Virus record (IMG/VR): IMGVR_UViG_3300049491_000234
Location: 1 to 25,949 of that record
Strand: one strand, 5' to 3'
DNA: 25,949 bases
From: a virus
Below the pieces are notes generated by a model. It was not told the DNA's origin. It saw only the letters and a program-made list of their open reading frames with translations, and ran no database searches. How positions within the stretch are numbered: the first letter of the stretch is position 1; each line of letters opens with the position of its first letter. Below are positions 1,754 through 20,330 of the stretch, piece by piece. The translations under genes and the position numbers were made by a program.

Positions 1754-1998
1754 TGAGTCAATTGGCAAACAATCTCGAATCAGAGATTGAGATATTGCGC
1801 GCTGCGAACGAGAAAATGCGCACTGACTGCCGAGATGCTGGGAATGCAATGGCAGAGATGGAAGACGAGTTCCAGCGCCTGCTATCCCCAACAAACGCCG
1901 AGATACGGCTAGCCGCAGGCGAGATGACTGCGCAAGAACTAAGGACGGTTCGCGCCGTCCTTAATTGGCTGAAGGCCAAGAGCGGAGCAGGCTTCTAA
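1753..1998 (+). CDS. Small coiled-coil phage protein
   Basis: This 81-residue protein starts at ATG 1753, which overlaps the previous stop by one base (TGATG) and is preceded by CGGAGG, so it is very probably translated with the Myb-like gene. Residues 5-45 are strongly helical and acidic (LESEIEILRAANEKMRTDC), consistent with a coiled coil, and the C-terminal half reads as two more helices. No family is recognised. Its last 60 bases are antisense to the 3' ends of the convergent spanin genes, a tail-to-tail overlap between the plus-strand operon and the late minus-strand operon. Confidence 0.65.
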   Translation: MSQLANNLESEIEILRAANEKMRTDCRDAGNAMAEMEDEFQRLLSPTNAEIRLAAGEMTAQELRTVRAVLNWLKAKSGAGF

Positions 1999-2244
1999 CG
2001 GTGTCAGCGTGACGCTCAGCCGCGACTGTATGCTCGCTCGCAACTGACAAAGCCTCAGCCAGTACGTCGCCGCAGGCGGCGGCAATTCCACCACCGGAGG
2101 GGGCGGCACCTGCGGAGGTTTCACCACTACTGGCCGCATCGATTCGCTTGCGCAGGATTGCAGCATCAGCGCTAGCAGCAGCGCGCACGGTAGCCACAGC
2201 AGCCGTGAATTCTCGTTTTGCTTGGTCGATTGCCTTTTGTCCAT
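1939..2244 (-). CDS. Rz1: Rz1-like outer-membrane spanin lipoprotein (o-spanin)
   Basis: This frame lies inside and beyond the Rz gene in a different reading phase, the classical nested Rz/Rz1 layout. The product has 101 residues. A basic N-terminus is followed by a hydrophobic segment ending in a lipobox (LALMLQSC, with cysteine at about residue 31). After it comes a proline-rich stretch typical of Rz1 (VVVKPPQVPPPPVVELPPP). In lambda the lipoprotein sits in the outer membrane and pairs with Rz across the periplasm to fuse the two membranes in the last step of lysis. It is longer than lambda Rz1 and runs 22 bases past the Rz stop. The nested position, lipobox and proline content make the call firm despite little sequence identity. 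Confidence 0.87.
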   Translation of the reverse strand: MDKRQSTKQNENSRLLWLPCALLLALMLQSCASESMRPVVVKPPQVPPPPVVELPPPAATYWLRLCQLRASIQSRLSVTLTPLEACSALGLQPIKDGANRP

Positions 2245-2473
2245 CTTGCACCGCCTCTATCCATTGCCGTTCGGTTTCCCTGAATTCCTTGTCGGCCACC
2301 AAAGCCGCCGCGTTGGCCGCTGCGCGCTCGTTAGCGATCACCGTTTGCAGTTCCGCTAGGGATGCCTTGGCACGGTTCATTCGCCACGTTTGAGCGCCTC
2401 CAAACAGCAGCGCGAACACCAGTAGGGCGCCGCCAGCGGGGAGCAGGTAGGGGGCTAGGAATTTCAGGATCAC
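1961..2473 (-). CDS. Rz: Rz-like inner-membrane spanin (i-spanin)
   Basis: This 170-residue protein has one N-terminal membrane anchor (about residues 5-27, LAPYLLPAGGALLVFALLFG) followed by a long alanine- and glutamate-rich coiled-coil region (about 35-110), as in Rz spanins, and a C-terminal part with two cysteines or fewer. The start is GTG at 2473, overlapping the upstream TGA by four bases (GTGA), so translation is coupled. The nested lipoprotein gene in another frame confirms the identity. Family knowledge: the i-spanin spans the periplasm and contacts the o-spanin once the murein has been degraded. It is the second-last gene of the lysis cassette. Confidence 0.87.
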   Translation of the reverse strand: MILKFLAPYLLPAGGALLVFALLFGGAQTWRMNRAKASLAELQTVIANERAAANAAALVADKEFRETERQWIEAVQDGQKAIDQAKREFTAAVATVRAAASADAAILRKRIDAASSGETSAGAAPSGGGIAAACGDVLAEALSVASEHTVAAERHADTVRSLLRSWPSAN

Positions 2474-4160: not shown

Positions 4161-4507
4161 GGTTTGTTCTTTCTTGCTACCAAAGCTAGGACCATCACGA
4201 CGGACAGAATTCCAATCGAACTGAGGTCGAATCCCAAAAGGCTCGAACACTGAGCCTGCCCCGGCTTCACTTCCCAAGGCCGGATCATGTATAGAGTAGA
4301 ACAGACTATTACCTGCGCTTCCTCCGCTATCCACCAAACCGCAACCAGTGACAGCGGCCTCCATCTCCATGCAGCCGCCACTAGACACGCTAGGATGATC
4401 GCTGATCCTGAGATGTTCCATACTTGCGCCTGCCATTCCGGTCTGACCCATTCCCACCCGTAGTGCCTTAGAACGCCTGCCAATAAGAGCGGCGCGAACC
4501 ATCGCAT
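4157..4507 (-). CDS. Multi-pass phage membrane protein
   Basis: This 116-residue tryptophan-rich protein has three hydrophobic regions: about residues 1-13, 32-62 (ISGSAIILACLVAAAWRW and the following leucine/valine-rich stretch) and 91-110 (LSSIGILSVVMVLALVA). A central soluble loop with two cysteines separates the last two. The ATG at 4507 directly follows the TAA of the 43-codon gene. Proteins of this type are frequent in lysis regions of proteobacterial phages and are usually listed as membrane proteins. A holin or antiholin function is possible. Confidence 0.68.
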   Translation of the reverse strand: MRWFAPLLLAGVLRHYGWEWVRPEWQAQVWNISGSAIILACLVAAAWRWRPLSLVAVWWIAEEAQVIVCSTLYMIRPWEVKPGQAQCSSLLGFDLSSIGILSVVMVLALVARKNKP

Positions 4508-4639
4508 TTATTTTGTTGGGACAGGACCGCCGCCGCCGAGCGTCACCACCAGCGTATCTTTCACCTTGCCGGCCGGCATCTTCGAAACTGCAACCAGTGC
4601 AGCGCGGTAACCGAGAATCGTCAGAGCAATTGTGAGCAT
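4508..4639 (-). CDS. Very small (43-residue) hydrophobic protein
   Basis: A 43-codon frame starts at ATG 4639 with a good ribosome site (AAAGGA, five bases upstream) and ends with TAA immediately before the ATG of the next membrane protein. The N-terminal half is hydrophobic (MLTIALTILGYRAALVAVSK) and the C-terminal half is beta-prone and glycine/proline-rich. The ribosome site and zero-gap junction make it likely to be translated. Function unknown. Confidence 0.55.
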   Translation of the reverse strand: MLTIALTILGYRAALVAVSKMPAGKVKDTLVVTLGGGGPVPTK

Positions 4640-4651
4640 GGCAGTCCTTTA

Positions 4652-5071
4652 TCAGAATTTATTCAAAAACGATAATTGTGTAACCCCTCGTTCGCGGGAT
4701 AGATAAATCGCTCCATCCCCGATATACATTCCCAAAGCACCCCCGGCAATCGTCGCCGCCAGGTCTTTGCCGCTGAAGTGATTCCCGGTCTGCGTCGAGT
4801 CTGCAAGTTCCTTCAGGAGCCCGATTGTCGCCGGAACGGCCATTGCTTTCCAGCGGCTATCTTGGAACTGAAGGCGCCCCGCAAACCCGGCAAGCGCACC
4901 GAACACAGCATGCTCTGACTTGTCGTTGTTCGTGACATATAGCCCGGAATCCTGCTGAACAGGAGGCTTTTTGTCATGCGCATGCGCAGCACTGGCGAGA
5001 GTCAACAGCATGACACCAGCAAGGAGCATCGCTGCTGCGACGCCTAGATAGACTTTGTGATGTGCTTTCAT
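4652..5071 (-). CDS. Secreted YfiM/DUF2279-like protein
   Basis: The 139-residue product starts at ATG 5071 with AGGA six bases upstream. A longer in-frame start at 5092 would overlap the tailspike gene. Residues 1-32 form a signal peptide (KVYLGVAAAMLLAGVMLLTL, ending ASAAHAH). The mature part matches the general YfiM/DUF2279 pattern: NDKSEHAVFGALAGF, then GLLKELADS, GKDLAATIAGGALGMYIGDG. The HxxxG, KE-x-DS and DL-x3-GG elements are visible. These proteins are predicted periplasmic or membrane-associated with no firmly established role. It is the first gene of the lysis cassette, so a function in envelope disruption or superinfection control is possible. Confidence 0.68.
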   Translation of the reverse strand: MKAHHKVYLGVAAAMLLAGVMLLTLASAAHAHDKKPPVQQDSGLYVTNNDKSEHAVFGALAGFAGRLQFQDSRWKAMAVPATIGLLKELADSTQTGNHFSGKDLAATIAGGALGMYIGDGAIYLSRERGVTQLSFLNKF

Positions 5072-5081
5072 TGGATTCCTA

Positions 5082-6788
5082 TTAGTCTTCATCGCATTCA
5101 AAAATGACACTAATCTCACCAGTGCCGACCTTACCTCCAGCAGACGTGACAATGACAGGACGACTACTTGAAACGATGGTAGATGACGCAATCGTGATTT
5201 CCTGCACATCGTGCAAGGCTTGTGACGTATGCGAGGTAAACGATGCGTAGGTGTATGTTGCGTCGTCTGATTTAACCGTAATAGTCACCCCTGCATCTGC
5301 GCTTGACGCCTCGGTGTAGATCACTGCAATGCGAGTTACTCTGCCGTTGCGCTTCGGGATGTAGATGATTTTTGTAGACGCAGCGCCGGACAAATCCATG
5401 ATGTCAGACCTGTATTGCCGGGACTGATAAGGGCTATGGACAACTGTGCCGGCAGTGGTCCCACTGGCATGATTTACAGTCCCCAATTGGTCATCATATT
5501 TTGTCAGTGTTGCCGTGTCGGAGATGTAGACCTGTGACCAGTTGGCACCGCCCGCAAAATCCTTGCAATTATGCACCTGTGCGGTTGCTGAATTCTTCAA
5601 AGCCAACGCATACCCATTTGCCGAGGCCCCATCGTTGCTGCTCCAAGTACAGTCTTCCAGAATTACTTTTGCAGTGCTTGAAATATTCACGACACCAGTG
5701 TTTGCGGCAACTAAGTGCGACTCAAAATTACATGAGACACACCGCAAAGCAGCATTAGAGGTGACGACTAACGCTTGTGACTGGCCTCCGCCTTGTTCGC
5801 CCCCAAAGTTGCAGGCATGCAGGAGATATGTGAAACATGAAGCGATATTGAACCCTGTAATCTGGTGTTCCTCAGAATAAAAGCGATCCCAGTGCACGTT
5901 TATGTTTGTCCCCGCCGTCCCGGTTGAATATGCTCCATAGGAGCAACTATCGCACCGCACATTGCGAACGGTCGAATCCCAAAAGCGATCCCCGTAGTGA
6001 ATCCCGTACTCAAATGTGAGAATCCGCAAATTTTTGAATTCTGATTGAGCAACACCAAGCGTTATGTTTTGCTTGATCCCCGCATTCGATGCACCACGCC
6101 CAGCCGTCGATACGATCCCAAAATCTCTGAGTACAACTCTGCGGGCATCCGAAGTTGTCTCAATGCAGTTTATGGTATTGACGGAGGTCGCAAGGATGGA
6201 TGCGTTACTTCCCTCACCAAACAATGTTCGATTGTCTGTAACGCTCAGAGCGGTCGAAATCTTGTATGTACCAGCGGGCAAGAAAACAACTTTCCCGGCA
6301 TCTAATGCAGCCTGAATTTCAGCCGTGTCGTCAGCGACTCCGTCCCCGGTTGCCCCGAAATCTGTTTTGACGTTCAGTATCTGGCCTTCATGCCAAGCAT
6401 GCTGTGTCGTCGCAATGGCCCCAGCAGCGGTTCGCTTCACGCCAACCATTGCGTCGCCATCAGCGATATCACCGGTGTTTGCTAGTCTAGTCCACATAGC
6501 CGCAGCAGACTCTGCGCCTTCAGTTTGGACAAGCCTCTCAGGCCCCCAGATCGTTGAGGCGGCCGAGTCTTTCAGAACTACGTCATACGTCCCAACCCAG
6601 TAGATTGCAGCTTCACCCCGGGCATCCAGAACAACCGGGTGCGCATTGGCGACACTCGCCGCTGCTGTGGTGTAGGTATCTTTCGGGGTCGTCGTCCCTG
6701 CGACATAGGCGTACACCTTCCCGCCGACAAGAGGGGCGCCGGTTGATGTGGCGAAGTAATTCTTGCCGTTAGGAAGGACTACAGCCAA
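5082..6788 (-). CDS. Tailspike with beta-helix (pectate-lyase-like) domain
   Basis: The 568-residue protein has two parts. Residues 1-80 form a particle-anchoring domain (LVGGKVYAYVAGTTTPKDTY, then VVLDARGEA and VVLKDS), which is shared with the fibre at 6966-7994. From about residue 142, DFGATGDGVADDTAEIQAAL and VFLPAGTYKI mark the start of a right-handed beta-helix of the Pectate_lyase_3 type. A compact beta-rich C-terminus (about 470-568) probably trimerises or binds receptor. Family knowledge: such spikes bind and often cleave capsule or O-antigen. The start is TTG; alignment with the other fibre (MAxxxP) supports it, and AGGTAGGG lies upstream. Enzyme activity and substrate are not shown by the sequence. 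Confidence 0.88.
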   Translation of the reverse strand: MAVVLPNGKNYFATSTGAPLVGGKVYAYVAGTTTPKDTYTTAAASVANAHPVVLDARGEAAIYWVGTYDVVLKDSAASTIWGPERLVQTEGAESAAAMWTRLANTGDIADGDAMVGVKRTAAGAIATTQHAWHEGQILNVKTDFGATGDGVADDTAEIQAALDAGKVVFLPAGTYKISTALSVTDNRTLFGEGSNASILATSVNTINCIETTSDARRVVLRDFGIVSTAGRGASNAGIKQNITLGVAQSEFKNLRILTFEYGIHYGDRFWDSTVRNVRCDSCSYGAYSTGTAGTNINVHWDRFYSEEHQITGFNIASCFTYLLHACNFGGEQGGGQSQALVVTSNAALRCVSCNFESHLVAANTGVVNISSTAKVILEDCTWSSNDGASANGYALALKNSATAQVHNCKDFAGGANWSQVYISDTATLTKYDDQLGTVNHASGTTAGTVVHSPYQSRQYRSDIMDLSGAASTKIIYIPKRNGRVTRIAVIYTEASSADAGVTITVKSDDATYTYASFTSHTSQALHDVQEITIASSTIVSSSRPVIVTSAGGKVGTGEISVIFECDED

Positions 6789-6836
6789 GGGTAAACCCTA
6801 CCTTCCTGCGGTTGAATATCGCCTAGAGTAGTCAAC

Positions 6837-6965
6837 ATGAAAACACTCATCATCTGCCTGTTTCTAGTTGCCTGCGGTGGGGGCGATCCTGAAGACATCG
6901 ATTCCACTTCGGATGGTAAAAAGACAATTGACCCTCCGAAGTGCGAATTGCTGGTCTGTGTTTGA
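6837..6965 (+). CDS. Small lipoprotein on the opposite strand (moron candidate)
   Basis: A 42-residue product starts at ATG 6837: MKTLIICLFLVACGGGDPED is a complete short lipoprotein signal with lipobox LVAC, cysteine at residue 13. The mature peptide has about 30 residues, begins with glycines and acidic residues and ends KTIDPPKCELLVCV with two further cysteines. It occupies the only sizeable gap between the two tail fibre genes, on the strand opposite to the operon, and its TGA abuts the stop codon of the convergent fibre gene. No clear promoter was identified in the 48 bases upstream. The D after the GGG spacer does not make the sorting compartment certain. A role in superinfection exclusion or surface alteration is inference. 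Confidence 0.72.
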   Translation: MKTLIICLFLVACGGGDPEDIDSTSDGKKTIDPPKCELLVCV

Positions 6966-7994
6966 TCAGTCAGCAAAATACGCCCCGGTGATATACATAT
7001 CTAACGTATCAGTCACCGACGTATCCGTTAACTGAGTGCCGGTCCCTGTCGCCCCCCATTGAACAATCCCGACCGTCGTCGCGCCGGTTAACGGGTTCGC
7101 TACTACCGATCCCGTGAGCCCGGTAAACCCAGTACCGTGCACCACCATCGCAGATTCTGCGGTGTCGGTTGAAGATGCGGCGTAAGGAAGCCCGGTAATT
7201 TTGAACGTCCCCGTAGAACTTCCTTTGGAAGTTAGTTTCATCCTGATCTGCACATAGACTGCTTTACCGATCCTGACGTAGTATCCTTTTCGGTTGATGT
7301 TGTAAGTTACCCCAACCGCTGCGCCGCCAAATGTGATGCCAGGAGTCCAGTTGCCCTCTTCATAGTAATCAAGCGTCGAGGCATCTGATCTGGCTGTATT
7401 ACCTACTTTTATGCCGAATGTATGGGTGCTAACTACTAACGGGAATGATGCTGCACCATTGCATGTCAGCGTTGAACTGAGCGTCTGCGCGCCACTCCAC
7501 GTATGCGCCCCTGAATGGGTAGGGTTGTTTGTCCACGTCACTGCATTCGGAGTGACGGTGAACGAATCCGCTCCTGCGTCTCCTACAGTAACGTTTCCGT
7601 TGAACAGGTGATTCCCGGACCACGTGTGATTCCCTGAATGTGTCGGGTTTCCTGACCACGTAACCGCAGAGCCTGTGAATACCGCAGTCCCTGAAACAGT
7701 AGGACTCGCAAACGTCTGCGAACTTGTCAAGTCGCGAACATCATCGACTGACCATATCTGAACGTCTATGGAATCCTTCAGCGTGAGTTTGTAGCTGCCA
7801 TTGAGCCACACATCCGCTTCGCCTCGGGCGTCAAGAATCACCGGGTTTGTATTCGCTGTCCCGAGTGTGTAACTGGTGTATGTGTCCTTCGGCGTCGAAG
7901 TCCCTGCGGTGTAGGCGTAGAGTTTCCCGCCAACCAAAGCTAGCCCATCCGAGCCGACTGCGCGGAATTTAGGTGCTGGGGTTAGTTGGGCCAT
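6966..7994 (-). CDS. Tail fibre protein with shared anchor domain
   Basis: The 342-residue protein begins with the same anchor domain as the tailspike downstream (LVGGKLYAYTAGTSTPKDTY, VILDARGEADVW). A middle region (about 95-185) consists of short Thr/Ser/Asn/Gly-rich repeats of the form NPTHSGNHTWSG. This occurs three times with variations and is typical of fibre shafts. A C-terminal domain starts near YYEEGNWTPGITFGG and includes GYYVRIGKAVYVQIRMKL and KITGLPYA, a pattern common in phage fibre tips. It lacks the beta-helix, so the particle probably carries two alternative receptor-binding proteins. The ATG is at 7994. Confidence 0.83.
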   Translation of the reverse strand: MAQLTPAPKFRAVGSDGLALVGGKLYAYTAGTSTPKDTYTSYTLGTANTNPVILDARGEADVWLNGSYKLTLKDSIDVQIWSVDDVRDLTSSQTFASPTVSGTAVFTGSAVTWSGNPTHSGNHTWSGNHLFNGNVTVGDAGADSFTVTPNAVTWTNNPTHSGAHTWSGAQTLSSTLTCNGAASFPLVVSTHTFGIKVGNTARSDASTLDYYEEGNWTPGITFGGAAVGVTYNINRKGYYVRIGKAVYVQIRMKLTSKGSSTGTFKITGLPYAASSTDTAESAMVVHGTGFTGLTGSVVANPLTGATTVGIVQWGATGTGTQLTDTSVTDTLDMYITGAYFAD

Positions 7995-8002
7995 AATGTG
8001 GG

Positions 8003-8173
8003 GTGACGTGGATTATCGCTTTGATTCTTCGGCCTGTAGCTGCTTTGATTCTTCTCGGGCTAATCTGTCTGCCTGTTCGCTTGGTTGTTCAATACTGGAT
8101 GCCGAGCGGTTCATTGAAGAGGTTATTGTTGCGCGATCTGCGAACCACCAAAAACGCCAATAGGCATCGCTAG
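8003..8173 (+). CDS. Small single-pass membrane protein on the opposite strand
   Basis: A 56-codon plus-strand frame starts at GTG 8003 (TTG 8021 is an alternative). Residues 3-31 are hydrophobic (ALILRPVAALILLGLICLP), followed by RLVVQYWMPSG and a basic tail with KRLLLRDLR. The architecture of a membrane helix, then a MPxG turn, then KRLLL resembles small membrane proteins I associate with other phages. It fills the 128-base gap between the fibre and ejection-protein genes and runs 51 bases antisense into the 3' end of the latter. A CATAAT sequence at 7992-7997 could be a -10 box, but the matching -35 is poor and the ribosome site is weak. A real gene is plausible, not certain. Confidence 0.5.
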   Translation: MTWIIALILRPVAALILLGLICLPVRLVVQYWMPSGSLKRLLLRDLRTTKNANRHR

Positions 8174-9739
8174 TTGTTCGTTTGAAAGAAGCCTAGCAAG
8201 AGGGTTTGCGCCACCAACCCGGCCTGCGTTTTCAACCGCCCGGCGTTGAATCGGGCCTGAAAGGATGGCGCTTCTAGCCGCCGGCCTGGCAACCAACCAC
8301 AGAGCCGCCAGAGGATTTCCACCGCTGCCGGCTAAACCAATACCAGCCGCGCCGAAGTCCAAAGGCGAAAGTGATTTAGGGGTTTCCTTGAGCGCTTGCG
8401 TCGCTTTCGGAAAAAAAAGCCCAGTCTCTGCAATCGTTCTAAGTTCGCCTGACAGCGGTTTCTTGCGCTTCAATTCGTTCGCCAGGACTTGTGTAGATAC
8501 GTCCCCTGTGGCTGGGTTCAAAGCCTTTTCAACCGTATCGGTTTTGGCGATCTGTTGCCGCGCTTCACGGAAAGCCGCCAACGCATTAGGCGTGCCGTTC
8601 GTCGCCAGATGGCGCTCTAGTTCATCCTCAAGTGCCCGGGATGCTTCCTTCGCAGCCTTCCCTAGCCCGGTGTCGCCTTTGCGGAATGCAGAGTCTGCGG
8701 TTTCCCGCAAGACCTTGGTCATGTCTACGGCCCCCTCAGCGCTGAAGCTCGGTTGCTTCAACGCCTCGACCATCTGCCCGACCTCGTTCTTTACCGCCCC
8801 CGGGAAGTCCTTAGCTGCTGCCGTGTACTTGTTCGCGATTCCGTCCAACGCCTGGGCATACTGCGGACTCGCAGAAACCGTCCCCGTACCTTTAACAACC
8901 TGATAGGCTTGCCCAGCATCGGCCCGGAGTCGATTCAGCGTCTGCGGGTTCAATGGAACATCGTCAGCAATCCCTAGCGCTTTCTTGGCTAGGGCATTCG
9001 CGATCGGCTGATTCCGTGCGCTCGCCTCCTGCGCAGTCTTGATCTTTCCTGAAAGCCCAGATACCGCCTCGGCGATCTTCCCAGCCCCCGGAATATCAGC
9101 AAGCGGGATTACATACCCGTAAGCCGCTGCTTTCTCTGCGGCTTGAACCTTCGGGGCGACAGTCTTTGCGGTCTTCCCAGCGGCCGACAGTTGATCTTGA
9201 ACAACCGCCCCGGCACGGTTCGCGATAGCTTGTCCCGCAGCCCCGCCGGCCGCTCCCAATACGGGATTTAGCAACGCTTCCTTTGTCGATTCGTAGGGCT
9301 GCAGAGCGCCCACCACACCACCAACAGCAGTGGCCCCTGCGACTGTGTTGGCACCGGGGATTAGGGCAGTAGGCGCGATCATGGCGATGTTTCCGCCGAT
9401 GTTTCCCGTAACACCGCCTGCGGTTTTCATCAAAGGAGCATCTAGCCGGCGGGACTCCGCAATGTCTTGCGTGGAAACAAGTCCGAGCTTCTGCCCAACA
9501 CCGCGACCTAGATCGACAAACGCCTTGCCAATTCCTTCGACTGCGTTCTGCCCAAAACTCGACCCTGCCGTGGGGTTGTGTTTCGCTTGGTACTCAGGAG
9601 ACTGCGGATCGTACTCCGCAGGGTTTTGCTTGATGATCTTGATTTTCTTGAGCGTATGAAGCCCTTCGACGGACATGCCGTCTAGGTTCCTGGCCTTCAG
9701 GGCTTTCAGGTCTTCAATGCTCAAGTCGTCAAGGATCAT
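8123..9739 (-). CDS. Large internal virion / DNA-ejection protein candidate
   Basis: The 538-residue protein is alanine-rich and mostly helical. It starts with LSIEDLKALKARNLDGMSVE, then has a glycine/alanine-rich hydrophobic region (about 105-175, for example NIGGNIAMIAPTALIPGANT) that could insert into a membrane. Long charged helices follow (about 190-440), then a second hydrophobic stretch near residues 470-500. Position as the third large gene after the gp10 homologue, and composition, match the gp16/gp20-type ejection proteins of P22-like phages, which leave the capsid with the DNA and help it cross the envelope. Sequence similarity to those is not evident to me, so the call rests on synteny. 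ATG 9739 overlaps the previous stop by four bases. Confidence 0.65.
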   Translation of the reverse strand: MILDDLSIEDLKALKARNLDGMSVEGLHTLKKIKIIKQNPAEYDPQSPEYQAKHNPTAGSSFGQNAVEGIGKAFVDLGRGVGQKLGLVSTQDIAESRRLDAPLMKTAGGVTGNIGGNIAMIAPTALIPGANTVAGATAVGGVVGALQPYESTKEALLNPVLGAAGGAAGQAIANRAGAVVQDQLSAAGKTAKTVAPKVQAAEKAAAYGYVIPLADIPGAGKIAEAVSGLSGKIKTAQEASARNQPIANALAKKALGIADDVPLNPQTLNRLRADAGQAYQVVKGTGTVSASPQYAQALDGIANKYTAAAKDFPGAVKNEVGQMVEALKQPSFSAEGAVDMTKVLRETADSAFRKGDTGLGKAAKEASRALEDELERHLATNGTPNALAAFREARQQIAKTDTVEKALNPATGDVSTQVLANELKRKKPLSGELRTIAETGLFFPKATQALKETPKSLSPLDFGAAGIGLAGSGGNPLAALWLVARPAARSAILSGPIQRRAVENAGRVGGANPLARLLSNEQLAMPIGVFGGSQIAQQ

Positions 9740-11061
9740 TTCTTGGTTTTCCGCGCAATCGCCGCGTCGATCTCAGCGTCGCCAAAGTCCCCAGTAGCGC
9801 CACCTTGAACGCCAGCCTTCGCAGGGCTCGTTCCCTTCCGAAGATCGCCCAAGTACGTCAAATAGCCGTTCAGTTTGTCTACGATCTGTTCATCCGAGTC
9901 GGTATCCGCCGGCAGAAAACTGCGCAATCTCGCCATTTCCTGCGCAGACTGCGCAGCGCCAGCCCGCTCATTAATAATCTTGCTGACGTTGTTGAAAATG
10001 TAAGACCTGGCCTGTCTTTCCGCAGACGAATCCAGTCGCCCCACAAGAGATTCTGAAACATCTCCGCCCTTCGTCCCAAGCCCACGCTGGAAACTAAACG
10101 CAGATGGATTCGCCTTCACTGCGGCGATTGCGCCTTGAATCACTGACTCTTGCTGCCCGATAGAAGTTAGTTCCTTCTTCGTGTTCGCATCGATTTTTGC
10201 CGCTACTGGTTTGCCACCTGCGGTAATAGCCCGCCCCTCACCAGATCGCAGGTCTACAATCATCGGCCCATCTTCCGTATCAAGCACGACGCCTTTAGGG
10301 GCCGCCGTGTCTATGGCTAGCCTGCCTTGGTTCACTGCCAGATTGCCTCTGGCAACAGCGTCCTGATTCTGCTGATGTGCTGCGGTTGCGGCATCTCGCG
10401 CTTCAGTCAACCCAGCAGTTCTATTGAAATGCGTGTCCGCCTGATTACGCGTCAAACTCCTATCGTGAGACTCCAACAACTTGTCAGCGTCCATGATGCT
10501 TTTCAGTTCACGCAGTTTGTAGGAATCAAACTCTGGTCCCTCTTGTTGAGGAACTCCCGCCTTCAATTGATCCGCGTATGCTTTGTCCCAGTATCCTTGA
10601 AGCACTCCGTTATCAATTGCCGCGATGGCGTCTGCCGGTCCTTTGGCTGATTGAAGCGATTTAATCCCGTATTGAAGTTTCAGCCGACCAGTCTTCACCG
10701 CGTTTTGCCGTGCGTCTTCCTCGTCCTTGATTGCTTGCGCTTCGACCTTCCGCTTATCGAGCATTGCTTTCCGCAGAACATCCGCAGCCGCATAGCCTTG
10801 CTGTAGATTCGTGCCCTCCATCGCTGATATACGCGCTTCAGGCGTTGCATTCGGCCCAAGTGATGCCAGGGCATTCCGAATTGTTTGCGCTTCCTGTAGG
10901 CCCCTTTGCCGGTCTTGCAGGTTCATTTGCCCGGTTTGAAAATTGAGCGCGTTCGCCCCCATCTGCTGTCGCTGCAGATCGAGCGCGTTCTGTTCCTGCG
11001 TGTAGTCCGCTACGCTGCGAACCGGCTGCGTAGCCGCTGGGCTAATGATGGGTTGCGGCAT
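9736..11061 (-). CDS. Putative internal virion / DNA-ejection protein, glutamine-rich helical
   Basis: A protein of 441 residues (443 if the TTG at 11067, overlapping the upstream stop as TTGA, is used). Residues 20-130 are glutamine- and alanine-rich helices (NALDLQRQQMGANALNFQTG), with more coiled coil around residues 200-250. A short beta segment follows (GVVLDTEDGPMIVDLRSGEG), then a helical C-terminal domain ending in lysines. There is no signal peptide or strong membrane helix. It sits between two other ejection-protein candidates with overlapping ends, so a role as part of the ejected protein set is inferred from position and composition. A virion protease or scaffold function cannot be excluded. 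Confidence 0.6.
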   Translation of the reverse strand: MPQPIISPAATQPVRSVADYTQEQNALDLQRQQMGANALNFQTGQMNLQDRQRGLQEAQTIRNALASLGPNATPEARISAMEGTNLQQGYAAADVLRKAMLDKRKVEAQAIKDEEDARQNAVKTGRLKLQYGIKSLQSAKGPADAIAAIDNGVLQGYWDKAYADQLKAGVPQQEGPEFDSYKLRELKSIMDADKLLESHDRSLTRNQADTHFNRTAGLTEARDAATAAHQQNQDAVARGNLAVNQGRLAIDTAAPKGVVLDTEDGPMIVDLRSGEGRAITAGGKPVAAKIDANTKKELTSIGQQESVIQGAIAAVKANPSAFSFQRGLGTKGGDVSESLVGRLDSSAERQARSYIFNNVSKIINERAGAAQSAQEMARLRSFLPADTDSDEQIVDKLNGYLTYLGDLRKGTSPAKAGVQGGATGDFGDAEIDAAIARKTKK

Positions 11062-11063
11062 GT

Positions 11064-12332
11064 TCAAGGCCCGTAAGGATCGGTCGCGTAATTCGGCAAC
11101 CCGTATTGATTGATTCCATTCGAGTCCTGCTGTCTGCCGTACAGTGACGCCAGTTGATTCACCGCCCCAGCATAAATGTTCCCCTGAGCAATGTTGTTCC
11201 CGGCCTGAGCCTGTCCGCCGAATATCGAGTTAGCCCCGGCCTGATTCGCGTAGTTCTGCCCAGCTCCTGCGACTTGCTGGTTCGCCTGCGGGCCGAATCC
11301 TGCCAATTGAAAGAGCGGATTAGTGGTGTTTGTTCGCTCGGTCTGAAAACGATTAAACGCGTCGTTGTAGAACTTGTTCGCGTTGTCTTCAGCAAACCTA
11401 GCCCCGGCTTTCAGCGAAGCCCCACCAATCCCTCCCCTTGCCGCTGCGCTGTTGTCAATCGCTCGTTGTCCTTCTCGCGATGCGAACTTGTACCCGGCTT
11501 CCTCCATTGGATTCATACCAGCAAATTTGCTGGTAAGACTGCCGTCTTGCAGAAGACCCGAGAGTTTTGCTAAGGCGTTTTCACCCGCAGCGCGCCAAGG
11601 CGCGGCATCCGCTCGGACTTGATTGAATTGATCCCGCTGCAACGCAGTGGCTTGATTCGCCGCATCGCGTTGTGCGCTTGCCGCATCACTTGCTCCTTGA
11701 GACTGCAGCAAAGCGCTAAGAATCGGCGCCCCGTACTGCGCAGCCCCGGCCCATCCTGTTGCCATACCGCCCCCAATTCCGCCCGCTACCCCGCCCGCCG
11801 AACCGCCAGCAAGAGCGCCGCCGCCATAGCCGCCGGCTGCACCGCCAGATACCCCGCCAGCTGCTCCACCAACCTCTGCAGCCCCTCCACCGGCAGCGCC
11901 CCCCGCGACAGCGCCTCCAAACACGCCGGCAGCCGCAGCCGCTCCGCCGAGCCCTAGCAAACCAGCGTTAAAAAACCCGGAATCATTGATCGACCCATTC
12001 CGAGCAATGATATTTCCTTGTGGGTCCACCAGCCCGGTATACCCAGTTGAATTGTTATACGCGGTTTGGAAGCCTTGATCTCTAGCCCACGGAGCTACCC
12101 CAGCGTCGTAAACAGGCGAACCTTCAAACGCCCCAGATTGGGGGTTTTGTGATGCCGAATCTGCCGAACCTGTATAGCCTGCGTTTCTATAGTTGTCAGG
12201 CGCAAACAGCGAGTAAGGATCAAACGCGGTGGTGAATTGGTTGTCGAGATTCGCCCCGCCTATAGGTTCTGCTCCCCCTGTTAATGGCGTCCACCCGGAT
12301 GGCAATTGTGCTTTTCGCAGTGCATTAGCCAT
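11064..12332 (-). CDS. DNA transfer/ejection protein with glycine-rich membrane-like segment
   Basis: The 422-residue protein has three regions. The first (1-120) is Asn/Gly/Tyr-rich. The second (about 122-205) consists almost only of Gly and Ala (AAAGVFGGAVAGGAAGGGAA), a likely membrane-active or flexible segment. The third is helical (about 210-422) and includes SDAASAQRDAANQATALQRD, APWRAAGENALAKLSGLL and AARGGIGGASLKAGARFAED. The last region resembles phage proteins annotated as DNA transfer proteins, in which a GGLRGG-type motif follows an APY/W-x-AG-x-NAL motif. It would act during DNA injection. It has a three-base gap to the upstream gene. The family call is moderate and the exact function inferred. 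Confidence 0.68.
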   Translation of the reverse strand: MANALRKAQLPSGWTPLTGGAEPIGGANLDNQFTTAFDPYSLFAPDNYRNAGYTGSADSASQNPQSGAFEGSPVYDAGVAPWARDQGFQTAYNNSTGYTGLVDPQGNIIARNGSINDSGFFNAGLLGLGGAAAAAGVFGGAVAGGAAGGGAAEVGGAAGGVSGGAAGGYGGGALAGGSAGGVAGGIGGGMATGWAGAAQYGAPILSALLQSQGASDAASAQRDAANQATALQRDQFNQVRADAAPWRAAGENALAKLSGLLQDGSLTSKFAGMNPMEEAGYKFASREGQRAIDNSAAARGGIGGASLKAGARFAEDNANKFYNDAFNRFQTERTNTTNPLFQLAGFGPQANQQVAGAGQNYANQAGANSIFGGQAQAGNNIAQGNIYAGAVNQLASLYGRQQDSNGINQYGLPNYATDPYGP

Positions 12333-12335
12333 ATA

Positions 12336-12956
12336 TCACCAGCATGGGATGTACCTCGTGGTGCCATTATCGTTTATCGGCACCCATTTAGTTGGGTTAC
12401 CGGCTGCCGGAGCGTTCAGCAAAGTCCCCGCCGCAGCAGCCGCGCCGTTTGTCAGTCCTGTCGTCGTGGTTAGAAGCGTCGCGCTGCCGTGCGTAATCCC
12501 GCCTGTCGTGGAGATTGACGTAGCACCGCTCAAGGCGCCGCTCATCGTCAACGAGGTTACCCCGGTCAGAGTACCGGACATAACCAGACTTGTCATCGTC
12601 GTGCCGGTCGTGAAGATATGCGCTGCTGTCCAAGTCGGAGCGATTCCTACGTTGATTGCCGGTGCGCCGTCAGATCGAAGGAAAGTGGCCGCAGACCCGT
12701 TAACCGCAGTCAGATCTGCGCTTCCTGTGGGGTCTGCTCCTACAGGGTAGGCGGGTGTCGTGAACGTCCCGGAAGCATTCAGGAATGTCGTCGTCGTGGT
12801 CCCGTCTCCTCCGAGGCTTCCAGTGGGAACCTGACCGAACGTAGCGCCGATGAAATCGAACAAAGCCCGCATCCAGCCCAAAGCCCGAGGCGTAGGCGTT
12901 CCGTCTGGGTTAGACCAGACTGCGGTGGGCTCGAAGTTGCGGACTTGTGCAACCAT
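12336..12956 (-). CDS. Fibre-like virion protein at the gp26 (tail needle) position
   Basis: The 206-residue protein has a predicted alpha-helical head (about 20-45, PRALGWMRALFDFIGATFG) and then a Thr/Ser/Gly-rich, beta-prone shaft. The shaft repeats LTGVTSLTMSGALSGATSIS-like units at about residues 125-155, and the protein ends in a compact VPINDNGTTRYIPCW. That ending resembles C-termini I associate with podophage fibre proteins. In P22 the gene directly after gp10 encodes gp26, the trimeric needle that plugs the tail; this gene has the same place, but no helical-needle sequence is visible. A short spike or needle tip is the best guess. The ATG overlaps the upstream stop by one base (TAATG). 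Confidence 0.6.
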   Translation of the reverse strand: MVAQVRNFEPTAVWSNPDGTPTPRALGWMRALFDFIGATFGQVPTGSLGGDGTTTTTFLNASGTFTTPAYPVGADPTGSADLTAVNGSAATFLRSDGAPAINVGIAPTWTAAHIFTTGTTMTSLVMSGTLTGVTSLTMSGALSGATSISTTGGITHGSATLLTTTTGLTNGAAAAAGTLLNAPAAGNPTKWVPINDNGTTRYIPCW

Positions 12957-14341
12957 TACGTGATGTAGGCCCCGGTGACGTTTCTTTTGACTGGGTCTGT
13001 GATCGTTACCTCAAGCACCATCCTACGACCCCCTCCGATACGCCTCCAGACGCATCGCTTTGCGTATTCGCCGATAGCGCCGAAACTGCGCCACAAAGCA
13101 TTCGACCAAGTTTTGCCGCCGTCCTTAGACCAGCGAAGCATGGCCTGAGGATCACTACCCTGTCCCGATGTCAATCCAACCCCGGTATCCATGTCCAACT
13201 GGAAAGAGGTATGGGGCTGCATCTCTAGCCCGCTTTGAAGCGTCGAGCAAGCCCGAATCGCCGGCAGTGGGTTCCCATTGTCCGAATAGGTATCGAGGTC
13301 ATACTCGTAAATCGCCCCGGTTTCCCAATCTCCCACGAGATTCCGATTCGTGAAGTACATATGGCACCTGGGGCGAATCCGGTACAAGGCGCCGCTTGAA
13401 TGGAGATAGGCCCGCTGGTGCCATTCGTTTGTCGTGATGTCATAGCACCACGTTTCATTCCCTGAGACTGAACTGAGGACGTAGAAACTATGTCCTTCTT
13501 GGTTATAGGTGAACGCCTCTGCGTCCGACATATCAGACCAATTCGAAATGGCAAACTCAATCGCAGGGGTGGAGATTCGCCTAGGGGCCCCTCCGGTCAC
13601 GGTCCACACTGAACCAGCGCCCTTCTCATCCCCACTGAGCCAGAACACACCATCCATCTCTGCAATGGAGTCTTTCGCCACACAACCGATTTCAAAGAAC
13701 CCGCCGTCAATGCGTGAGAATGGGGTATCAGCCCCACCTGAGTCGTACCATTGCTCTAGTGATTTTGTCCCGAACAGATACACCGTCCTGCGCGCGACCT
13801 TCACCCCGGCCATCTTGTCAGGGGAGCCGTTAGCGGCTTGAATGCTTAGTGCCTTGAAGGTCGTCGAAACAACGTCAGACCAGACAAAGAAATCCGTTCC
13901 TTGTTCAGTAGCTACAAACCTATCATCGATGTAGTCAACGCTGCTGATGGTTGTGCGAATCAGCGTAGCCGCAGCACCAGTCAACGTTAGCGAGTACATA
14001 CTTCCAGCGGAAACCACAACGATGCTTGTCCCGTTCCATACAATCTGAACAGGCCGTGAGTCGTTTGCAATCGTACCTAGAAGTGTCGTAGCGAAGTTAT
14101 TATCTACCTTCCATACATTCCCGCCGCAGACAACCACCGAATTCATGGTGTCGATTGGATACATCCCGCGAATCCCGCCGCCCGTCAAAGTCATTAGCGG
14201 AGAAGTCAATCCGGGACACCCAATTAGCAGGGCTGGCGACTTTCCCTTACCAGCTTCCAAATACCAGTTCACGCACCGCTGCGAGCTGTAGTTATCACTA
14301 CGGCCCTGGTAACTTGAGCCAATGAACGGAATTTCCTTCAT
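12956..14341 (-). CDS. P22 gp10-like packaged-DNA stabilisation (tail hub) protein
   Basis: The 461-residue length matches P22 gp10 (472 residues). The N-terminus IPFIGSSYQGRSDNYSSQRC followed by VNWYLEA corresponds to the start of the Phage_stabilise family (usual form: IPL-GSY-x-RS, then RC-x-NLY-PE). The rest reads as repeated beta-strand blades, with VYLFGTKSLEQWYDSG, GVFWLSGDEKG and WCYDITTNEWHQRAYL, consistent with the beta-propeller-like tail hub. In P22 it binds under gp4 and closes the channel after packaging. The start is ATG 14341, overlapping the upstream TGA by four bases; a longer TTG start at 14365 is less likely. Confidence 0.88.
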   Translation of the reverse strand: MKEIPFIGSSYQGRSDNYSSQRCVNWYLEAGKGKSPALLIGCPGLTSPLMTLTGGGIRGMYPIDTMNSVVVCGGNVWKVDNNFATTLLGTIANDSRPVQIVWNGTSIVVVSAGSMYSLTLTGAAATLIRTTISSVDYIDDRFVATEQGTDFFVWSDVVSTTFKALSIQAANGSPDKMAGVKVARRTVYLFGTKSLEQWYDSGGADTPFSRIDGGFFEIGCVAKDSIAEMDGVFWLSGDEKGAGSVWTVTGGAPRRISTPAIEFAISNWSDMSDAEAFTYNQEGHSFYVLSSVSGNETWCYDITTNEWHQRAYLHSSGALYRIRPRCHMYFTNRNLVGDWETGAIYEYDLDTYSDNGNPLPAIRACSTLQSGLEMQPHTSFQLDMDTGVGLTSGQGSDPQAMLRWSKDGGKTWSNALWRSFGAIGEYAKRCVWRRIGGGRRMVLEVTITDPVKRNVTGAYIT

Positions 14342-19010: not shown

Positions 19011-19586
19011 TCACTTGCGAGCGGTTAAGGTGATGATCAAATCACGCCAGGAGTTCACGTATTTATCCATCATGAACGACTTCGCTTCTTGATTCCGACC
19101 CTCAATCGACGCATCCCACGACCCAGCGACGACATGATCGAAATGACAGGTGTATGAGACATGCGGAGCATTCGCGCTGCGCCAGTCTTTATGAAGGTAC
19201 AGCGGCCACCATTGAGACATGGGAGGCCATTGGTGAGTAGGATCGCCGTAGGCACAGGAATGCGACCAGTTCGGGGTGATGATCAGCGCCGTAGCGTCTG
19301 GCTTCATGACCCGCCAAAGATCGTTGAAGAACGAAACCCGCTCAGCCCCGGTCAGGTGTTCTACAAAATGTGACGACCGGACTTCGGCGATTGACTCATC
19401 AGGGAACGGAAGGCCCTTGCGAACATCGTGGACATGCTTCTGTCCAAAATCGATGGCGTCGATCCCGACCCATCCATCCGGCGTTGTTTTGCCGCATCCA
19501 ATATCAAGCCTGATCGGCACGCCGCCCATAGGCTCAAGCGTTGGGTCTGATAGCTCAACAGCGCGTAGAACATTCCCTTTAGCCAA
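19011..19586 (-). CDS. Class I SAM-dependent methyltransferase
   Basis: The 191-residue protein shows the Rossmann methyltransferase order: motif I RLDIGCG (residues 26-32), GWVGID ending strand 2 (38-43, acidic D43 for SAM ribose), HDV (53-55), then SSHFVEHL (71-78) and LWRVMKPDATALIITPN (90-106). A GDPTHQWPP segment follows. This is the Methyltransf_11-like layout of small phage and sugar-cluster methyltransferases. The start is TTG 19586 with AGGAG eight bases upstream, a strong site that decides it. It follows the glycosyltransferase by 12 bases. The substrate is unknown: a virion sugar, a virion protein or host surface glycan are possible. DNA methylation is less likely, as no DPPY/NPPY-type motif is seen. 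Confidence 0.82.
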   Translation of the reverse strand: MAKGNVLRAVELSDPTLEPMGGVPIRLDIGCGKTTPDGWVGIDAIDFGQKHVHDVRKGLPFPDESIAEVRSSHFVEHLTGAERVSFFNDLWRVMKPDATALIITPNWSHSCAYGDPTHQWPPMSQWWPLYLHKDWRSANAPHVSYTCHFDHVVAGSWDASIEGRNQEAKSFMMDKYVNSWRDLIITLTARK

Positions 19587-19598
19587 AGCATCTGCTCC

Positions 19599-20330
19599 TT
19601 ACCAAGTCATGTCGGGTGGGCCAAACTTGCCTTCGAGATCGTAGTGCCCCACCAGCACACCACAATCCACCGCGCAGCGGTAGCCCTGTTTCCGCGCGTC
19701 GCTCCAGAAGTACAAATCCTGAGTCGCTACCCCGTTTTCGGTCTGCGTCTTGAACCACGGCTTTCTAAGGTCCGGGTCGCGGAACATATCGAGGCGCCAT
19801 AGATTAAACCCCATCCCCGTGCCGCAGCATTCGACAACCTCGCCAGCCCTTGGCGGTTGAGGTCTAAAGTTGTTCACTGGGTCACGAGGGTCGCCCCAAA
19901 TCTGAGGCATGCCGCCTTCGCCCTTGGTGAAATAAAGGCCACCGATGCAGTCGAAATCCTTGCCTTCTGGGGATTCCATCCGCTGAAGCAGTTTCACCAG
20001 GCCATCGGGCGGAACGATGTTGTCATGCTCGATAGTCAGGAGATACTTGAACTTGGACAGATCAGGGTGCGCCAGAATCGCCTCGATGGCTTGGCTGTAG
20101 GCTTCTCCAACTTCCATGCCCACCGCGAACATGCGGTAGAGCTGGTTGTTCGGTGGCGAGTACATGTTCCACCATGAGGCCACCACCTTTGTAGGTACAG
20201 TTCCCCCGGCAGGGATCAAAACTATCGTGTCTAGGCGTTTCCACGACGCCGAGTCTTTGACCCGCGCGATGGTCGCTTCCATCTCGGCATTGTGCTTGCC
20301 GTAGTCCTGCGCGATGAATTGAGGTTTCAC
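19599..20330 (-). CDS. Glycosyltransferase (GT-A, family 2-like)
   Basis: The 243-residue protein begins with an unusual 30-residue helix, then TIVLIPAGGTVPTKVVASWW (about 35-54) as the first strand and loop of a GT-A fold. The metal/sugar-nucleotide site is probably IEHDN (residues 100-104, a DxD-like motif after strand LLT). Further elements are CIGGLYF (128-134), CGTGMGFNLWR (169-179, acceptor loop), TQDLYFWSDARKQGY (203-217) and a final GHYD. Such enzymes move a sugar from a nucleotide donor. The start is GTG 20330 with AAGGAA upstream. It is immediately followed by the methyltransferase, suggesting that the two act on one product. The acceptor is not shown by the sequence. Confidence 0.78.
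   Translation of the reverse strand: MKPQFIAQDYGKHNAEMEATIARVKDSASWKRLDTIVLIPAGGTVPTKVVASWWNMYSPPNNQLYRMFAVGMEVGEAYSQAIEAILAHPDLSKFKYLLTIEHDNIVPPDGLVKLLQRMESPEGKDFDCIGGLYFTKGEGGMPQIWGDPRDPVNNFRPQPPRAGEVVECCGTGMGFNLWRLDMFRDPDLRKPWFKTQTENGVATQDLYFWSDARKQGYRCAVDCGVLVGHYDLEGKFGPPDMTW

What the first reader, a model, noticed from the sequence alone, without database searches (positions are those of the whole stretch)
6837..8173. Two counter-strand membrane-targeted mini-genes bracket the second tail fibre gene
In an otherwise unbroken minus-strand late operon, the fibre gene at 6966-7994 is flanked by plus-strand frames encoding a complete 42-residue lipoprotein (6837-6965, lipobox LVAC) and a 56-residue single-pass membrane protein (8003-8173). 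Both would act in the host envelope. Their position around a receptor-binding gene suggests accessory genes that travel with the fibre and may block superinfection or alter the receptor. Seen: the frames, the lipobox and the hydrophobic segment. Inferred: expression and function.
Basis: partly seen in the sequence, partly recalled or inferred. Interest (0 to 1): 0.58.

Follow-up and report, generated by a model that had tools for sequence, protein, structure and literature searches.

The report
Antisense membrane mini-gene behind ejection gene
A 56-residue membrane-protein gene sits on the opposite strand, tail-to-tail with a phage gene that looks like a DNA-injection (ejection) gene; phage P22 keeps in the equivalent place a gene that stops other phages from injecting, so this is probably a tiny, different kind of infection blocker, which nobody has tested.

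Summary
Both frames exist as stated, but they are different things.

The 56-residue frame (8003-8173, +) is a real gene. Relatives lie in 30 non-redundant phage records, always counter-strand and tail-to-tail overlapping (4-198 nt) the third gene of the ejection-type block ('ejC', 8123-9739). Codon-position rates (0.41/0.19/0.64) show selection on the protein. 13 of 30 have a strong -10-like hexamer 4-9 nt before the start (control mean 0.21), so a leaderless message is likely. Three named records carry it unannotated (Rhodoferax P26218, Xanthomonas PBR31, MW202557). A second, unrelated single-helix family fills the same slot in 12 more.

[quoted passage not shown] I infer an exclusion protein that works like SieA but is not a SieA: no sequence match, one helix instead of three. 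Function untested.

It travels with the ejection-type gene (42 of 42), not the fibre (22 of 42 by the test used). Its distances do not track those of ejC.

The 42-residue lipoprotein frame (6837-6965) has a good lipobox but no relative was found; its reality is open.

The parts
8003..8173 (+). 56-aa single-helix membrane protein gene (family A), GTG start
   Evidence: 30 non-redundant homologues, all in the same place and orientation; codon-position rates and dN/dS; one helix predicted
7992..7997 (+). -10-like hexamer CATAAT, 5 nt before the GTG; start of a probably leaderless message
   Evidence: 5 of 6 matches to TATAAT; 13 of 30 family copies have such a hexamer 4-9 nt before the start, control mean 0.21, maximum 2
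8123..9739 (-). third gene of the ejection-type block ('ejC', 538 aa), convergent neighbour of the mini-gene
   Evidence: relative of PBR31 'putative internal protein C'; position after ejA/ejB; no PHROG or P22 gp16 match
8123..8173 (.). 51-nt tail-to-tail overlap of mini-gene and ejC
   Evidence: overlap present in 30 of 30 family-A loci
9736..11067 (-). second ejection-type gene (ejB)
   Evidence: synteny and homologues in related loci
11064..12332 (-). first ejection-type gene (ejA)
   Evidence: PHROG 598 'DNA ejection', E 5.5e-27
6966..7994 (-). fibre gene 1, back-to-back with the mini-gene
   Evidence: PHROG 26190 and 17970 matches; fibre-type gene next in 22 of 42 loci
6837..6965 (+). 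42-aa lipoprotein-like ORF, orphan; not part of the slot, listed because the finding names it
   Evidence: strict lipobox scan, 0.055 expected per 26 kb; no relative
5082..6788 (-). fibre gene 2 (pectate-lyase-like), downstream of fibre gene 1
   Evidence: PHROG 18522 tail protein; Pfam PF12708

Best explanation
The 56-aa gene is a small superinfection-exclusion gene of P22-organised short-tailed phages. It has its own promoter just upstream of the start codon, giving a leaderless message from the strand opposite to the late operon, so it can be made while the late genes are silent (in a lysogen, or at once after DNA entry). The product sits in the inner membrane as a single helix, N-terminus probably outside and basic C-terminus inside. 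There it hinders the conduit that a second phage builds from its ejection proteins, so that DNA does not cross. The gene is physically locked to the ejection-type gene by overlapping tails. Shown: the gene, selection on it, its position, the -10-like element, the helix prediction. Inferred: promoter activity, membrane location and orientation, exclusion, and the ejection proteins as target.
For: Same slot in 30 of 30 non-redundant family-A loci, overlapping ejC by 4-198 nt; P22 has sieA (13336-13830, -) directly after gene 16 (11484-13313, +). [quoted passage not shown] A second, profile-unrelated single-helix family occupies the same slot: 9 of 9 loci found (one a repeat), plus 3 from the survey, 12 non-redundant, as SieA itself comes in three divergent types. 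-10-like element in 13 of 30 family-A and 6 of 12 family-B copies. Integrase in 7 of 23 carrier records.
Against: No exclusion, membrane or transcript data. No sequence relation to SieA; one helix instead of three. ejC is not detectably a gp16 homologue. Mini-protein distances do not follow ejC distances (Spearman 0.06 with the C-terminal half, 0.22 with the N-terminal half), so no specific pairing is seen. 16 of 23 carrier records show no integrase, many being fragments, and P26218 is described as lytic (PMC4657236, passages). Ten of 36 surveyed ejC loci have neither family.
Confidence: 0.5

Rival explanations
1. The mini-protein serves its own phage: an inner-membrane accessory for DNA entry, prophage life or host take-over that happens to be encoded beside the ejection genes. 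The slot is a site for small accessory ('moron') genes rather than an exclusion locus.
For: Distances of the mini-protein do not track ejC, as expected of a free accessory gene; it occurs in P26218, described as lytic, and in records without integrase; it is absent from some ejC carriers.
Against: Mixed cargo would be expected in a generic site; instead both validated families are single-helix membrane proteins with the same promoter layout and tail overlap. The one characterised gene in this position, sieA, is an exclusion gene.
Confidence: 0.3
2. The transcript matters, not the protein: a counter-strand message running into the 3' end of ejC dampens late-strand expression (antisense control).
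For: Opposite strand, tail overlap in 30 of 30 family-A loci, and a late-strand terminator-like hairpin just beyond the mini-gene start in 20 of 42 loci (control mean 2.2).
Against: Codon-position and dN/dS patterns show selection on the protein in family A, and codon positions do so in family B. The overlap is short in most loci and can be as little as 4 nt.
Confidence: 0.1
3. One reading: fibre-linked accessory pair, lipoprotein plus membrane protein, acting on the receptor in the envelope, like T5 Llp.
For: The lipoprotein frame has a sound lipobox and fills the gap between two fibre genes. Llp is a small lipoprotein encoded adjacent to the receptor-binding gene pb5 (PMC9586334, passages). 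A fibre-type gene follows the mini-gene in 22 of 42 loci.
Against: The mini-gene's constant neighbour is ejC, not the fibre. The lipoprotein has no relative. The segment before its cysteine is only 12 residues, short by recalled standards. Its -10-like match is 4 of 6, as at 11-15% of positions.
Confidence: 0.07

Closest known systems
SieA of Salmonella phage P22 (types A, B, C)
   Same: Counter-strand gene directly behind the third ejection gene and before the tailspike/fibre; own promoter; membrane protein; several unrelated-looking types in one slot.
   Different: 56 aa with one predicted helix against 162-164 aa with three; no profile match; no FxRYPxEAxxFNK motif in the sequence; overlaps the ejection-type gene where P22 sieA lies 22 nt away from gene 16; exclusion not tested.
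Membrane exclusion proteins said to act on injection in long-tailed phages (HK97 gp15, Tuc2009, TP-J34), as summarised in PMC10883804 section 14
   Same: Membrane proteins, some small, that block DNA injection through tape-measure or tail proteins.
   Different: Other phage types and targets; no sequence comparison was made here.
T5 Llp / T1 and phi80 Cor lipoproteins (for the 6837-6965 ORF only)
   Same: Tiny lipoprotein beside receptor-binding genes; two further cysteines (C36, C41).
   Different: No relative found; mature part of 30 residues; short signal segment; opposite strand to the fibres.

Membership tests
SieA | position between the gene 16 and gene 9 equivalents, on the opposite strand | tested here: met
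   by gene order only: behind the third ejection-type gene; in the window a fibre gene follows
SieA | neighbour gene is a gp16 homologue | tested here: inconclusive
   ejC profile gives no hit to gp16 at E up to 10, hhalign probability 1.7%; order and annotation in PBR31 support an ejection protein
SieA | sequence similarity to SieA | tested here: not met
   family-A and family-B profiles do not hit P22 SieA at E up to 10; hhalign probability 0.2% for family A
SieA | about 160 aa, three transmembrane segments | tested here: not met
   56 aa, one predicted helix at 3-32
SieA | FxRYPxEAxxFNK motif | tested here: not met
   absent on reading the window protein; motif from PMC10883804 section 13
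SieA | inner-membrane location and block of DNA injection | not testable with these tools
   needs experiments
Llp/Cor-type exclusion lipoprotein (6837-6965) | signal segment with lipobox | tested here: met
   LVAC at residues 10-13; segment before Cys only 12 residues
Llp/Cor-type exclusion lipoprotein (6837-6965) | encoded beside a receptor-binding protein gene | tested here: met
   lies between two fibre genes
Llp/Cor-type exclusion lipoprotein (6837-6965) | relatives in other phages, or match to a known family | tested here: not met
   no direct alignment to Llp or Cor was made
Llp/Cor-type exclusion lipoprotein (6837-6965) | intramolecular disulphide in the mature protein | tested here: inconclusive
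   two further cysteines (C36, C41) on reading the sequence; bonding unknown

The most novel reading that the evidence does not exclude
Behind the last ejection gene of a wide group of short-tailed phages lies a dedicated, largely unannotated exclusion slot. It is filled by interchangeable single-helix micro-proteins (at least two unrelated families, mostly 28-75 residues) made from often leaderless messages on the opposite strand. They close the inner membrane to incoming ejection conduits, and sieA of P22 would be one large occupant of the same slot.
Probability: 0.4. Interest if true: 0.8.

Novelty: new variant of a known kind. Interest (0 to 1): 0.62.

Why it matters
If true, superinfection exclusion at the injection step can be done by a single helix of about 50 residues, encoded where annotation misses it: on the opposite strand and overlapping a structural gene. 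The defined slot behind the ejection gene makes such genes findable across short-tailed phages, and how SieA-like proteins stop a conduit becomes testable with a far simpler protein. The cultured phages P26218 and PBR31 offer ready test systems.

Tried and rejected
Searches that led nowhere. Nucleotide search of 4500-9800 against phages: no match. tblastn of the window mini-protein against phages: no match; phage-record relatives came through a profile and then a consensus query. Genome-contig scans with A1 and A2: 32 and 53 pattern hits, none confirmed, so prophages in named bacteria remain unshown. Fibre queries: two distant loci and none. Plasmids: none. PDB fold search of the ejC model: nothing below E 0.001; viral library: 15 below 0.001, of which 11 uncharacterised, one with a lytic-transglycosylase domain name and 3 unnamed; an 'Injection protein' only at E 0.018 (model pLDDT 67.6). 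One search was a pattern of no bearing on the question.

Rejected ideas. (1) 'Travels with the fibre': a fibre-type gene is next in 22 of 42. (2) Shadow of a late-strand gene: most of the mini-gene lies outside ejC, and no late-strand ORF of 40 aa or more lies in the gap 7995-8122 of the window. (3) Specific pairing with ejC: not supported. (4) Holin or lysis role: not tested by experiment; the gene is on the wrong strand for the late lysis genes and matches no family. (5) The 45-aa late-strand gene annotated in the gap of MW202557: the counter-strand frame matches the profile instead.

Caveats on counts. The 30 family-A and 12 family-B loci are non-redundant by my own choice: I dropped same-contig and near-identical copies (L009/L039 against L002; L013/L041 against L003; L011 against L010; L016/L018/L021-L023 against L017; L020 against L019; L055 against L042; L035, L036, L043, L046, L048, L049 and L071 repeat earlier contigs). 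Some scripts used another member of the same group as the representative. The 36-locus survey was seeded with ten ejC proteins, nine from family-A carriers, so 22 of 36 with A and 4 of 36 with B are not population frequencies; one of the ten with neither is truncated (L070). L047 and L051 are weak profile hits (E 3e-4 and 6e-4), accepted because of position. The later profile was trained on its own hits. A few members are longer than 75 residues (L030, L069) through C-terminal extensions into ejC.

Papers: searches showed no description of this mini-gene in their listings. Only the open PMC library was searched, and I read abstracts, sections or passages, not whole papers.

Full report
WHAT IS THERE. 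The window is a 25,949-base virus record, probably a fragment, of a short-tailed phage organised like P22: NinB at the left on the plus strand, and on the minus strand a late block with major head protein, head-closure protein Hc3, ejection-type genes, two fibre genes and lysis genes.

THE 56-AA FRAME IS A GENE. Two relatives of the gene 8123-9739 (here 'ejC') showed the same counter-strand frame in the same place. An alignment of three copies found 19 loci among viral contigs; a wider one added one more. A profile then found unannotated copies in three named records: Rhodoferax phage P26218 (E 2.5e-9), MW202557 (5e-8) and Xanthomonas phage PBR31 (8e-7). Applied to 36 ejC loci it found the family in 22. 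Over 30 non-redundant copies, all 30 are counter-strand and overlap ejC tail-to-tail by 4 to 198 nt. Outside the overlap, differences per codon position are 0.407, 0.185 and 0.641 (13 sequences, 38 codons, 2964 codon pairs); dN/dS is 0 to about 0.6 in the 9 of 12 pairs where dS could be computed. No Pfam, PHROG, NCBIfam or PADLOC family matches convincingly (not every member was scanned against every library).

HOW IT IS EXPRESSED. A hexamer with at least 5 of 6 matches to TATAAT stands 4-9 nt before the start codon in 13 of 30 copies. Shifted places in the same loci give 0.21 on average and at most 2 in 2000 draws (a first version with 17 copies gave 8 of 17 against 0.12). In the window it is CATAAT, 7992-7997, before the GTG at 8003. 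22 of 30 copies show no Shine-Dalgarno-like stretch. This is what a leaderless message looks like, but no transcript was seen and no -35 element was tested. On the late strand a terminator-like hairpin lies within 110 nt beyond the mini-gene start in 20 of 42 loci (control mean 2.2, maximum 5). The window's own match is weak and lies inside the fibre gene, so I discount it.

A SECOND OCCUPANT. Four of the 14 ejC loci without family A carry another counter-strand single-helix frame overlapping the ejC stop. A search with these four gave nine loci, one of them a repeat; in 9 of 9 the frame overlaps (14-62 nt) a gene related to ejC. The 12 non-redundant members show coding-type substitution (0.364, 0.362, 0.604) and a strong -10-like element in 6 of 12 (control mean 0.07). 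The two family profiles do not match each other. The 42 convergent neighbours of both families form one BLAST-connected protein group. Ten of 36 surveyed loci have neither family; some of these hold other hydrophobic counter-strand frames that I did not validate.

WHAT IT PROBABLY DOES. P22 keeps sieA on the opposite strand directly after gene 16. Leavitt and colleagues (PMC10883804; abstract, section 13, first part of section 14 and passages read; [quoted passage not shown] Our mini-gene shares place, strand, a private promoter-like element and membrane nature. I therefore think it most likely (0.5) that it is a minimal exclusion protein acting at the inner membrane on incoming ejection proteins. 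Integrase genes in 7 of 23 carrier records fit expression from a prophage, and PBR31 is described as temperate (PMC10975493, passages). P26218, described as lytic (PMC4657236, passages), would need exclusion during infection.

WHAT SPEAKS AGAINST. The mini-protein is not a SieA by sequence, length or helix number. ejC cannot be tied to gp16 by profile, and its model (pLDDT 67.6) matches no solved structure. Its naming as an ejection protein rests on gene order, on ejA's PHROG 598 hit and on annotation in PBR31 ('putative internal protein C'). Distances between mini-proteins do not follow those between ejC proteins (Spearman 0.06 for the C-terminal half). SieA is also broad in its targets, but a tight pair is not supported. 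A free accessory gene with another role remains possible (0.3).

THE LIPOPROTEIN. 6837-6965 fills a gap between two fibre genes and has a good lipobox. Such an ORF is expected 0.055 times in 26 kb of Markov sequence. Nothing related was found, the segment before the cysteine is only 12 residues, and its upstream -10-like match (4 of 6) is ordinary. T5 Llp shows that such a protein beside a receptor-binding gene can exclude phages (PMC9586334, passages). I leave its reality open and keep it out of the slot described above.

VERDICT. I file it as a new variant of a known kind: works like SieA by inference, not a member of SieA.

Noticed in passing
window 5082-6788 and 6966-7994 (-): The two fibre genes share their first 81 residues at 52% identity, so both may attach to the same place on the virion with different tips.
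   Followed up: no
window 19011-20330 (-): A methyltransferase-like gene (PHROG 6636) and a glycosyltransferase-like gene (weak PHROG 12406) sit inside the late block, upstream of the scaffold and head genes.
   Followed up: no
window 1939-2473 (-): Rz-like spanin (PHROG 2466) with a second frame (1939-2244) overlapping it that looks like an Rz1 lipoprotein (Rz1 reading from recall).
   Followed up: no
window 4508-4639 (-): A 43-aa late-strand ORF gives a very weak hit to the family-A profile (E 0.025-0.041); probably chance.
   Followed up: no
L012:926-1402 (-): The gene after the mini-gene repeats a stretch like ejC residues 53-158 (42% identity): a partial duplication of the ejection-type gene behind the slot.
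   Followed up: no
L054:5501-5746, L064:5046-5279, L066:4940-5098, L067:5249-5434 (all - strand): ejC loci without family A or B show other hydrophobic counter-strand frames at or near the ejC stop; they may be further occupants of the slot.
   Followed up: partly
just upstream of the mini-gene start in many loci, e.g. L007, L014, L026, L038, L058: Late-strand terminator-like hairpins between ejC and the fibre gene, 20 of 42 loci against a control mean of 2.2, suggesting that fibre expression is insulated from upstream late transcription.
   Followed up: partly
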